Made by a program: the position numbers and the translations under genes. Below are positions 7,437 to 54,227 of a DNA stretch of 64,000 nt, piece by piece; within the stretch, counting starts at the first letter, position 1; each line of letters begins with the position of its first letter. Under the pieces are notes generated by a model. It saw only the letters and a program-made list of their open reading frames with translations, had not been told where the DNA came from and ran no database searches. Where the stretch lies: NCBI RefSeq assembly GCF_001422205.1, contig NZ_LMMJ01000001.1, positions 551,591 to 615,590 of the forward strand, given 5' to 3'. Origin of the DNA: Curtobacterium sp. Leaf261 (GTDB taxonomy: Bacteria > Actinomycetota > Actinomycetes > Actinomycetales > Microbacteriaceae).

Positions 7437-7510
7437 GTGTTCCGAACACGCTCGTCCACCCGGAACCCTCGTATCCGCGTGTTCGAGCTGGACGCACGTG
7501 TTCAGAACAC
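7437..7510. repeat. Family A palindromic element, copy A1 (74 bp)
   Basis: Outer blocks GTGTTCCGAACAC (7437-7449) and GTGTTCAGAACAC (7498-7510) are each self-palindromic, and the inner 48 bp carries a second inverted pair (CGTCC...GGAC, GTGTTC). The element lies between convergent genes. Its length is the same as four other copies in the window. Confidence 0.9.
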
Positions 7511-7524
7511 CTTCGCCGCAGGGC

Positions 7525-7806
7525 TCAGTCGGGGACTTCAAAGAAGCACGTGTCGCCCTCGCAGACCGGCGCACCGCCGGACGGGACGAGCGCGACGAGC
7601 GCGGGTCGTGCCTCCCGTCCGTCCACGACGCTCGACGCGACGCTCGCCTCGGACGCGACCCGCGTCTCGGACGCGACCGACGTCTCGGACGCGACCGACG
7701 TCTCGGACGTGACCGACGTCTCGGACGTGACCGACGCCTCGGACGTGACCGACGCCTCGGACTGGAGGCTCGGCTCCCCCTCCACGGACACGGTCACGTT
7801 CGTCAT
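7525..7806 (-). CDS. Small hypothetical protein with hexapeptide repeats and a CxxxxC tail
   Basis: The 93-residue product is not recognised. Residues about 17-60 are roughly seven SE(A/T)SV(T/A) repeats, encoded by an 18-bp tandem array at about 7630-7760. The C-terminus is VPSGGAPVCEGDTCFFEVPD, with two Cys separated by four residues. The ATG overlaps the stop of the DsbA-like gene (ATGA), so translation is coupled and a shared redox role is plausible. A 22-bp segment (7601-7622) encoding DGREARP is identical to one in the recO tail and looks like a family-C half-element that became coding. Confidence 0.6.
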   Translation of the reverse strand: MTNVTVSVEGEPSLQSEASVTSEASVTSETSVTSETSVASETSVASETRVASEASVASSVVDGREARPALVALVPSGGAPVCEGDTCFFEVPD

Positions 7807-51448: not shown

Positions 51449-54016
51449 CTACCCCTTGATCGCGATGTTCACGAGCCGCGGGGCGCGCACGATGACCTTG
51501 ACGATCTCACGCTCCCCGATGAACCGCTGCACGGACTTCGATCCGCGGGCGAGCTCCTCGAGTGCGTCGGCCTCGATCGTCGGAGGGACGTCGAAGGAGT
51601 CTCGGACCTTGCCGTTCACCTGCACCACCGCCGTGACGGACTCCTGCACGAGGAGCGTCGGGTCGGCCTTCCGCCACCCGTACGTGGCGACGGACGCGTC
51701 GTAGCCGAGGCGTTCCCACATCTCCTCGCCCGTGTAGGGCGCGAACACGCTGAGGCCGAGAGCGACGGTCTCCGTCGCCTCGCGGACGGCGGGGTCAGCG
51801 GGTCCGGCACCGGTGTCGATCGCCTTGCGGGTGACGTTCACGAGGTCCATGAGCCTGGCGATGACGACGTTGAACTTGAACGACTCCATGAGCCCGGGCG
51901 CGTCGGCGAGGAACCGGTGCGTGACCTGACGGAGCGCACGGTCGCCGTCGGCCCAGACCGCATCCGGCGTCGAGGAGACATCGACGGCGAGGCGGTACGC
52001 ACGCGCCAGGAAGCGCGCCGACGCGGCGGGCGAGACGTCCTCCCAGTTGATGTCGTCCTCCGGCGGACCGGCGAAGCCCATCACCAGGCGGATCGCATCG
52101 ACACCGTGCGCGTCGAGCTCGTCACCGAGGCTCACGCCACCCTTGCTCTTGGACATCTTCGAGCCGCCCGAGAGCACCATGCCCTGGTTGAGCAGGGCGT
52201 TGAAGGGCTCGGTGAAGTCGACGTACCCGAGGTCGAAGAGCACCTTCGTCACGAAGCGCGCGTAGAGCAGGTGCAGGATCGCGTGCTCGACACCACCGAT
52301 GTACTGGTCGACCGGCGCCCACTTGCGCGCCTCGGCCGGGTCGAACGCCTGGGTGTCGTCGTTCGGGCTCAGGAAGCGCAGCGGGTACCAGGACGAGTCC
52401 ACGAAGGTGTCCATGGTGTCCGTGTCACGGAGCGCGGGGGTGCCGTCGACCGGGTTCGGGACGTTCACCCAGTCCGTCGCACCACCGAGCGGCGACGTGC
52501 CCCGCGGCTTCAGGTCGAGGCCCTCGGTCGACGGCAGCCGGACGGGGAGCTGGTCCTCGGGCACCGGGTACTCGGTGCCGTCCGCGCCGTGGATGATCGG
52601 GATGGGCGTGCCCCAGAACCGCTGACGGGAGATCAGCCAGTCGCGGAGCCGGTAGGTCTTGGCGGCACGACCGGTGCCGGCCGAGGTCAGCGCGGTGATC
52701 GCGGACGTGATCGCGTGCTGCTTGCTCATGCCGTCGAGCGACCCGGAGTTGATCATCCGACCGGTGCCGGTCAGCGCGACGCCGGTGGCCGCCGGGTCGA
52801 GTGGCGGCAGGTCGAAGTCCTCGATCGTCGCGCCCTCCGGGATGACCGGGATCGCACCCGTGACGGCCGCGTTGGTGTCCACGACGACCTTGATCGGCAG
52901 GTCGAACTGCCGCGCGAAGTCGAGGTCGCGCTGGTCGTGTGCGGGGACGGCCATGACCGCGCCGTGCCCGTAGTCCGCGAGCACGTAGTCCGCGCTCCAG
53001 ATCGGCAGGCGCTCACCCGTGAGCGGATGGATCGCAACGCGCCCGAGGGGCACACCGGTCTTCGGGCGGTCCGCGTTCTGGCGGTCGATCTCGCTCGTCT
53101 TCTGGGTGGCGGTCAGGTACGCGTCGAACGCATCGCGCACCGGGGCGTCGGCCGTGGCGACCAGCTCGGCGGCGAGGTCCGAGTCCGGCGCCACCACGAG
53201 GAACGTGACACCGTGGATGGTGTCCGGGCGCGTGGTGAAGACCGTGACGGGCTCGTCACGACCCTCGATCACGAAGTCGACGTCCGCTCCGACGGACCGG
53301 CCGATCCAGTTGCGCTGCATCGCGAGGACCTTGGACGGCCAGCGGCCCTCGAGTTGGTTGAGGTCGTCGAGCAGCCGGTCGGCGTACTTCGTGATGCCGA
53401 AGTACCACTGCGTCAGCTTCTTCTTGACGACCACGGCGCCCGAGCGGTCGGACGTGCCGTCCGGCAGGACCTGCTCGTTCGCGAGGACGGTCTGGTCCAC
53501 CGGGTCCCAGTTGACCCAGCTGTCCTTGCGGTAGGCGAGGCCCTTCTCGTACATCTTGAGGAACAGCCACTGGTTCCACTTGTAGTACTCGGGGTCCGAG
53601 GTGTGGATCTCGCGAGTCCAGTCGAACGACGGGGCGTACCGCTTGAACGACGCCTTCTGCTGCTCGATGTTCGCGTAGGTCCACTCCGCGGGGTCCACGC
53701 CGCGCTTGATGGCGGCGTTCTCCGCCGGCAGACCGAAGGAGTCCCAGCCGATCGGGTGCAGCACGTTGAAGCCCTGCTGCCGCCAGTACCGCGCGACGAA
53801 GTCCCCGAGCGCCCAGTTCTCGGCGTGCCCCATGTGCAGGTCGCCGGACGGGTAGGGGAACATCTCGAGGATGTACTTGCGCGGACGACGGTCGTCCGGA
53901 TCGATCGTGAAGAGCCCGAGCTGTTCCCAGACGCCCTGCCACTTGTCCTGGATGCGTCGGAAGTCGTAGGCGTGCGGGTCCTCGACGGGCTGCTCGGACG
54001 GCTGCTCGGTGCTCAC
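51449..54016 (-). CDS. leuS: Leucyl-tRNA synthetase
   Basis: The 855-residue class I synthetase has the HIGH-type motif FPYPSGDLHMGHAENWALGD, the CP1 editing domain (FTTRPDTIHGVTFLVVAPDS and the later AVPAHDQRDLDFA), and KMSKS in SGGSKMSKSKGGVSLGDEL, with a C-terminal anticodon region. It charges tRNA-Leu and edits norvaline or isoleucine. It lies 88 bp upstream of comEA. The opposite strand of this gene is open for most of its length; that is a shadow. Confidence 0.99.
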   Translation of the reverse strand: MSTEQPSEQPVEDPHAYDFRRIQDKWQGVWEQLGLFTIDPDDRRPRKYILEMFPYPSGDLHMGHAENWALGDFVARYWRQQGFNVLHPIGWDSFGLPAENAAIKRGVDPAEWTYANIEQQKASFKRYAPSFDWTREIHTSDPEYYKWNQWLFLKMYEKGLAYRKDSWVNWDPVDQTVLANEQVLPDGTSDRSGAVVVKKKLTQWYFGITKYADRLLDDLNQLEGRWPSKVLAMQRNWIGRSVGADVDFVIEGRDEPVTVFTTRPDTIHGVTFLVVAPDSDLAAELVATADAPVRDAFDAYLTATQKTSEIDRQNADRPKTGVPLGRVAIHPLTGERLPIWSADYVLADYGHGAVMAVPAHDQRDLDFARQFDLPIKVVVDTNAAVTGAIPVIPEGATIEDFDLPPLDPAATGVALTGTGRMINSGSLDGMSKQHAITSAITALTSAGTGRAAKTYRLRDWLISRQRFWGTPIPIIHGADGTEYPVPEDQLPVRLPSTEGLDLKPRGTSPLGGATDWVNVPNPVDGTPALRDTDTMDTFVDSSWYPLRFLSPNDDTQAFDPAEARKWAPVDQYIGGVEHAILHLLYARFVTKVLFDLGYVDFTEPFNALLNQGMVLSGGSKMSKSKGGVSLGDELDAHGVDAIRLVMGFAGPPEDDINWEDVSPAASARFLARAYRLAVDVSSTPDAVWADGDRALRQVTHRFLADAPGLMESFKFNVVIARLMDLVNVTRKAIDTGAGPADPAVREATETVALGLSVFAPYTGEEMWERLGYDASVATYGWRKADPTLLVQESVTAVVQVNGKVRDSFDVPPTIEADALEELARGSKSVQRFIGEREIVKVIVRAPRLVNIAIKG

Positions 54017-54153
54017 GGAACTCTCAATCGATCTGGAGGGCGGACCGGCTGACTGGCACCAGGCCCGGTCACCAAGGATATAAGGACGCGGCCGCGGGTC
54101 GGTTCCGTGCGTCGCGCACGCCCCCGTCCCGCACCACGTGTTCAGAACGCGTG

Positions 54154-54227
54154 GTGTTCAGAACACGGGCGTCCGGCGGGAACACGCGGACAGGGGTGTT
54201 CCGGGTGGACGGCCGTGTTCAGAACAC
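54154..54227. repeat. Family A palindromic element, copy A5 (74 bp)
   Basis: Exact GTGTTCAGAACAC at 54154-54166 and 54215-54227, with internal GGGAACACGCG and GGTGTTCCGGG. This is the most symmetrical copy. A partial extra end (GTGTTCAGAACGC) sits immediately to its left. Confidence 0.93.

What the first reader, a model, noticed from the sequence alone, without database searches (positions are those of the whole stretch)
7437..54227. Family A: five intergenic palindromes, all exactly 74 bp, with nested GTGTTC/GAACAC blocks
Copies at 7437-7510, 8586-8659, 36948-37021, 46256-46329 and 54154-54227 have identical length and block spacing: a 13-bp self-palindrome (GTGTTCNGAACAC) at each end, then CGTCC...GAACAC and GTGTTC...GGAC inside. 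Interiors vary while block positions are fixed, which suggests selection on structure or a copied unit such as a REP/MITE-like element. All lie at gene 3' ends, three of them between convergent genes. I know of no named element with this design.
Basis: seen in the sequence. Interest (0 to 1): 0.75.

Follow-up and report, generated by a model that had tools for sequence, protein, structure and literature searches.

The report
Species-specific folding repeats after genes
Seventy copies of a rigid 74-base hairpin sequence lie mostly just past the ends of genes in one bacterium, likely a Curtobacterium, and related species carry other hairpin families of the same design; selection likely acts on the folded strand, and how such families spread without the usual transposase is not known.

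Summary
In detail: five rigid 74-bp palindromes (third copy is 36949-37022, one end degenerate), among 70 places in the 3.93-Mb genome. Of 66 genomes of the genus (likely Curtobacterium) only this one has family A; two hold a variant. Sister families C (72 bp), D (60 bp) and E (62 bp), with self-palindromic ends and fixed length, occur in 47, 25 and 20 of 66 genomes. At the site of copy 8586, 26 of 34 species carry a 60-82-nt hairpin, of seven types. Copies follow gene 3' ends: 34 convergent, 33 tandem, 1 divergent, 2 inside. A fixed 3x3 internal loop is kept unpaired (61 of 207 cells pair, 88.0 expected, p about 5e-5). No Y1/RAYT gene (0 of 36 genomes), no U-tract, no clear target duplication. 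Best reading: a REPIN-like hairpin repeat class without RAYT, selected as a folded strand, most likely at transcript 3' ends. RNA versus DNA action is open: sense and antisense fold equally well and family A alone shows no covariation. New variant of a known kind.

The parts
7437..7510 (.). family A copy 1, between convergent genes (tRNA_edit-domain protein 6905-7414 + and 7525-7806 -)
   Evidence: 45 of 46 block bases; no family A copy at this site in 11 of 11 relatives' loci
8586..8659 (.). family A copy 2, between tandem minus-strand genes: past the 3' end of a class II aminoacyl-tRNA synthetase gene (8681-10066) and upstream of a DSBA-like gene (7803-8567 as called)
   Evidence: 45 of 46; at this site 26 of 34 species carry a hairpin, of seven types
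36949..37022 (.). family A copy 3, convergent genes (HAD hydrolase + and DUF1990 -); left outer half-site degenerate
   Evidence: 43 of 46
46256..46329 (.). family A copy 4, convergent genes (ribosomal protein S20 + and DNA polymerase III delta -)
   Evidence: 44 of 46
54154..54227 (.). family A copy 5, tandem minus-strand genes (OpuAC-domain protein 54348-55268 and leucyl-tRNA synthetase 51449-54016)
   Evidence: 46 of 46

Best explanation
This is a family of 70 rigid 74-bp hairpin repeats, nearly all between genes at gene 3' ends, a REPIN-like element without the REP transposase, that is likely selected as a folded strand and most likely acts at the 3' ends of transcripts. Shown: fixed blocks and length, place after stop codons, a 3x3 internal loop kept unpaired, and sister families of the same design in the genus. 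Inferred: the copies spread early on this lineage by an unknown copying process; since then the blocks have been held constant, probably by a trans-acting factor that reads the two-fold symmetric base stem (GTGTTC-N-GAACAC), while unread positions drifted. In the cell the hairpin would block 3'-to-5' decay or help end transcription for either strand, which fits its symmetry and its place between convergent as well as tandem genes.
For: Rigid blocks in 70 places, reversed control 0. 34 convergent, 33 tandem, 1 divergent, 2 inside against 25, 70, 45 other gaps; divergent gaps avoided p 2.7e-8; convergent:tandem ratio fits one chance per 3' end. Median 30 bp to the nearest stop, 54 of 67 within 60 bp. 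Columns 14-16/59-61 pair in 61 of 207 cells, 88.0 (sd 6.5) expected, p about 5e-5; columns 22-26/49-53 pair in 162 of 345, 138.5 expected, p 0.004. Sense-strand bias: C-C over G-G in the loop 33:16, p 0.015; G-U over A-C in stem blocks 21:6, p 0.04; family C repeats the G-U bias over all pairs, 67:38, p 0.003. All 10 strand folds of the five window copies beat their shuffles (z -5.3 to -8.6). Family D also avoids full pairing of its 2x2 loop: 5 of 66, 16.2 expected. Family C: 179 both-side changes against 95.9 shuffled, covariation score 0.272 against at most 0.090 in slid versions. E copies are kept between species with about 93 percent identical flanks: 11 of 15 at 57 or more of 60.
Against: No transcript data. 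Sense and antisense strands have equal predicted stability (57 tandem copies, p 0.50). The G-U bias is partly explained by a T-over-A skew in sense flanks and loops. Family A alone shows no covariation above shuffles (102 of 500 reach the score). In family C the two measures least affected by relatedness do not exceed shuffles (15 against 15.5 pairs, 37 against 38.6 types), C-C over G-G is not significant (7:4), and its 3x3 loop is not significantly avoided (p 0.16; p 0.12). Avoided pairing could also protect against cleavage of a long DNA palindrome. No U-tract follows the copies.
Confidence: 0.45

Rival explanations
1. A non-autonomous mobile element that moves as a folded single DNA strand, like a REPIN, with an undiscovered or lost mobilising enzyme; 3' ends are simply where insertion does least harm.
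For: Dispersed copies; family A missing at orthologous sites in relatives; patchy families across species; in family E (one genome tested) and family C (two of four genomes clearly) the closest copies exceed the shuffle null, a sign of copying.
Against: No Y1 transposase in 36 genomes; direct repeats at the ends no more frequent than chance except 5-mers (2 of 55, 0.32 expected, p 0.033 before correction for 16 tests); A copies not clearly related to one another at variable columns; copies stable between close species; loss of either block would be expected in dead copies, yet no decayed tail in 426,518 own bases.
Confidence: 0.3
2. An array of double-stranded DNA sites for a dimeric binding protein (six GTGTTC half-sites in fixed phase), for example in chromosome organisation; hairpin potential is a by-product of dyad symmetry.
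For: Self-palindromic 13-mers at both ends, near-invariant blocks, equal sequence on both strands.
Against: A symmetric binding site predicts like arms, but columns 14-16/59-61 avoid matching; placement follows gene 3' ends and avoids divergent gaps.
Confidence: 0.12
3. Ordinary, unrelated transcription terminators that happen to look alike.
For: 3'-end place and strong hairpins. U-tailed hairpins are rare in convergent gaps here anyway (0 of 28 gaps with a copy, 1 of 27 without), so lack of a U-tract does not exclude a part in termination.
Against: 46 near-fixed bases in 74 over 70 places, fixed length and an enforced loop are not needed for simple terminators; at most 3 T in the 8 bases next to any of 70 copies.
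Confidence: 0.04

Closest known systems
REPINs (REP doublets forming hairpins), PMC3116915, passages read
   Same: Two conserved inverted ends of fixed spacing (71 bp between starts of the two 16-mers in type GI), a freer middle that still folds, intergenic place, compensatory changes.
   Different: REPINs go with a RAYT transposase and REP sequence; here no Y1 gene in 36 genomes, the ends are self-palindromic and the blocks continue through the middle.
GTAG- and CGTC-tagged REPs and REP dimers, PMC3733652, passages read
   Same: 3'-end place between tandem and convergent genes; CGTC type has no dedicated transposase; heterodimers (unlike arms) preferred in most families, called there without obvious explanation; G-U pairs taken as a sign of RNA action.
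   Different: Those are 20-40-bp units with an unpaired GTAG or CGTC tag at one end; here a CGTCC block sits inside a paired stem, and no actinobacterial family is named in the passages read ('actinobacteri' 0 occurrences in the main text).
Stem-loop repeat (SLS) families of bacterial genomes, PMC2267715, passages read
   Same: Species-specific, structured, mostly intergenic repeats.
   Different: A survey of 40 genomes; this genus does not appear in the passages read.

Membership tests
REPIN / RAYT-linked REP | two conserved inverted ends with a freer, hairpin-forming middle of fixed length | tested here: met
REPIN / RAYT-linked REP | Y1 (RAYT) transposase in the genome | tested here: not met
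   PF01797: 0 of 36 genomes of the genus, own included; control rings in 5 of 14 named genomes
REPIN / RAYT-linked REP | GTAG tag beside each hairpin arm | tested here: not met
   ends are GTGTTC-N-GAACAC; flanks show no common tetramer in 55 copies
CGTC-tagged REP | unpaired CGTC at one end of a 20-40-bp hairpin | tested here: not met
   CGTCC is at columns 17-21, inside a stem; columns 18-21 pair with 54-57 in 46-51 of 51 copies
MITE | target-site duplication | tested here: not met
   55 copies; only 5-mers 2 against 0.32, p 0.033 uncorrected over 16 tests
MITE | ends shared with an autonomous element | not tested
   no search for half-elements around a gene was made
intrinsic (U-tailed) terminator | stable hairpin | tested here: met
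   for the five window copies; mean -45.5 kcal/mol over 70
intrinsic (U-tailed) terminator | run of T after the hairpin | tested here: not met
   at most 3 T in 8 bases on either side, 70 of 70 copies
described RNA family (Rfam 15) | match at gathering score | tested here: not met
   0 matches in the window

The most novel reading that the evidence does not exclude
One genus-wide 3'-end hairpin system with species 'dialects': hairpin families that share an architecture (fixed length, self-palindromic ends, an obligatory mismatch loop) replace one another at the same 3' untranslated regions from species to species, each read by an undiscovered trans factor that co-evolves with the base-stem word, and spread without any Y1 transposase.
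Probability: 0.3. Interest if true: 0.82.

Novelty: new variant of a known kind. Interest (0 to 1): 0.6.

Why it matters
RAYT transposases are the standing explanation for REP-type repeats, yet here hairpin families of the same general design fill a genus in which no Y1 gene was found in 36 genomes. The preference for unlike arms, called unexplained for REP dimers (PMC3733652, passages), can be measured here at named positions in two families. The swapping of hairpin types at one site between species is a natural experiment on what reads the repeats and what spreads them.

Tried and rejected
RAYT link: not supported (PF01797). Target duplication: nothing convincing. U-tailed terminator: none (one tail count of 12 in that output is a slicing fault and was not used). 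Strand-specific RNA stability: no difference. Covariation in family A alone: not above shuffles. The slid-partner control for the G-U test was uninformative, because the fixed blocks themselves contribute. One search used a spacer one base too long and found nothing; family E was later counted. Exact patterns: 0 in genome contigs and viral contigs; BLAST of copy 8586 against plasmids: none. The family-level search used a stricter family C pattern; it missed G066, which has 11 by the looser pattern, so absence outside the genus holds for the strict pattern only. In one search the reversed control gave 1-2 matches in 7 genomes, and 7 of the 47 positive genomes (own included) have a single match, so single matches may be chance. 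One search scored 150 of 10,905 candidates. Paper searches listed no paper on intergenic hairpins of this genus.

Rows left out before counts: A1 omits one identical tandem copy (51 of 52). A2 omits 9 local tandem copies (52 of 61). One search uses 67 family C rows's list; left out by hand: all rows of G005, G001 and G063, 3 of 18 in G026 and 2 of 21 in G020 that are near-identical neighbours. One search uses 66 of 75 listed plus-strand family D rows, from 8 genomes; 9 left out by hand (one duplicate at a contig end, more degenerate rows, some single rows). Orthologous copies in different genomes were not removed there. One search uses all 75 listed plus-strand family E rows, of a list that was itself cut. 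Hairpin types were sorted by eye; 34 of the 36 genomes were examined (not G012, G023). Tests on 52-55 copies came first; repeat the main ones on 70.

Full report
What is there. The five palindromes are real. In register they run 7437-7510, 8586-8659, 36949-37022, 46256-46329 and 54154-54227. The consensus is GTGTTC-N-GAACAC, NNN, CGTCC-R-NNNN, GAACAC, a ten-base centre near SCGGATSCGS, then the mirror image. The genome (3,926,430 bases, 14 contigs) holds 52 places with up to 3 mismatches to the full pattern, 67 and 69 with two patterns for the 60-bp core, and 70 by a covariance model. In 426,518 own bases, 65 of 70 copies score 39 or more of 46 and nothing outside the copies scores above 28 (shuffled maximum 26).

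Whose genome. The three best named relatives of the protein beside copy 8586 are two Curtobacterium records (90 percent) and an unnamed Microbacteriaceae (89 percent), so the genus is inferred to be Curtobacterium. The full pattern was absent from 58 relatives, 35 of the genus. With the core pattern, of 66 genomes of the genus only the own one has family A (67); G080 has one place at 3 mismatches. With geometry alone, G079 and G080 hold 5 and 6 places of a variant. The exact pattern was in no record of genome contigs or viral contigs, which may leave out this genome's own records.

Where it sits. With my own codon-usage gene caller trained on the window, the 70 copies fall 34 convergent, 33 tandem, 1 divergent, 2 inside; other gaps of at least 90 bp in the same sequence are 25, 70 and 45. 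Divergent gaps are avoided (p 2.7e-8), and the convergent:tandem ratio fits one chance per gene 3' end (34:33 against 50:70, p 0.28). The nearest stop codon is a median 30 bp away; 54 of 67 copies lie within 60 bp, and in tandem gaps the 3' end is the nearer one in 27 of 33.

What is selected. If 3' triplets are shuffled among the 69 distinct copies, columns 14-16 and 59-61 should make 88.0 (sd 6.5) Watson-Crick pairs of 207; they make 61 (p about 5e-5). Columns 22-26/49-53 pair more than expected (162 of 345 against 138.5, p 0.004), and the centre 33-37/38-42 slightly less (200 against 211.7, p 0.03). So one internal loop is kept open while another helix is favoured. A folded strand is the natural reading; avoidance of a long perfect DNA palindrome is the alternative, and is offered for REP heterodimers in PMC3733652 (passages). 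In copies between tandem genes, read in the sense direction, C-C outnumbers G-G in the loop 33:16 (p 0.015) and G-U outnumbers A-C in the stem blocks 21:6 (p 0.04). Family C repeats the G-U excess (67:38, p 0.003) but not the C-C one (7:4). Against this, sense flanks and loops carry more T than A, and the two strands have equal predicted stability. RNA action is favoured by place and symmetry, not proven. Family A alone gives no covariation above shuffles, because its blocks hardly vary.

Copying. At the 28 variable columns no dispersed pair of A copies is clearly more alike than the column-shuffle null (23 against a null mean of 22.9, maximum 25); two tandem pairs 132 bp apart are. A null over all 74 columns shows a slight excess (68 against 65.6, p 0.03), which shared loss of outer half-sites could cause. 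In family E of G001 and family C of G020 and G016 the closest pairs exceed the null, in G026 they do not, and in G060 it is marginal. Direct repeats at the ends are at chance except 5-mers (2 of 55, p 0.033 uncorrected). No Y1 transposase was found in 36 genomes.

Relatives. At the site of copy 7437 none of eleven relatives' loci has family A. At the site of copy 36949 G010 has a family C copy instead. At the site of copy 8586, 26 of 34 species carry a hairpin of 60-82 nt: A in 1, E in 8, D in 6, a D-like form in 2, and three further types in 3 each; 8 have none of these (sorted by eye). Family C (GCCGAG-N-CTCGGC ends, 72 bp) is in 47 of 66 genomes, up to 44 copies, with 7 genomes at a single match and a reversed control of 1-2 in 7 genomes. 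Family D (GAACC-W-GGTTC ends, 60 bp) is in 25 of 66, up to 26 copies. Family E (AACACCGGTGTT ends) is in 20 of 66, up to 27. Family E was sought with a gap of 24-50 bases, yet all 75 sequences I examined have the same length, so fixed length is not imposed by the pattern. A stricter family C pattern hit 1 of 299 genomes of the taxonomic family, a member of this genus. Family C copies also follow gene ends (31 convergent, 25 tandem, 3 divergent, 2 inside).

Structure in the sister families. Family C shows 179 both-side changes against 95.9 shuffled and a covariation score of 0.272 against 0.133 shuffled and at most 0.090 slid; the tool warns that relatedness can inflate these, and the two measures it calls least affected do not exceed shuffles. 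Family D avoids full pairing of its 2x2 loop (5 of 66 against 16.2). Family C does not significantly avoid pairing of its 3x3 loop (p 0.12 and 0.16). E copies are shared almost unchanged between G001 and G005 (11 of 15 at 57 or more of 60), whose 5-kb flanks are about 93 percent identical, so the elements are stable rather than restless.

Verdict. This is a REPIN-like hairpin repeat class that fails the RAYT and GTAG tests, so it resembles a REPIN in form but is not filed as one. The most likely role is a bidirectional hairpin at transcript 3' ends read by a factor that recognises the symmetric base stem; that factor and the means of spread are unknown.

Noticed in passing
17471-17542 and 34792-34865: A second fixed-length palindrome pair with its own blocks (GGCCGC, CGCAG, ATTTCCCTGCG, GCGGCC) and free bases between them, same design principle as family A.
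   Followed up: no
19486-19529, 25319-25373, 54284-54327, 61780-61827: Near-perfect hairpins with GGAGGC/GCCTCC arms, also at similar places in all five relatives scanned; a different, conserved hairpin family of the genus. GGAGGC or GCCTCC occurs in 11 of 28 convergent gaps with a family A copy and 12 of 27 without.
   Followed up: partly
46172-46205: A separate perfect hairpin between the S20 gene and family A copy 4; relatives keep a hairpin there too, beyond which four of five carry other palindromes.
   Followed up: partly
8533-8580: A YATTCC motif upstream of the DSBA-like gene is present in the aligned gap of all 34 species examined, in several of them inside a short palindrome; possibly a promoter element.
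   Followed up: no
54138-54150: A degenerate extra end (GTGTTCAGAACGC) just outside copy 5.
   Followed up: no
G026:C1:1706324-1706454: Two family C copies share one terminal 13-mer (59-bp period), so the ends also act as direct repeats; similar chains in L203 and L204.
   Followed up: no
2192-2270: A 79-bp imperfect palindrome unrelated in blocks to family A.
   Followed up: no
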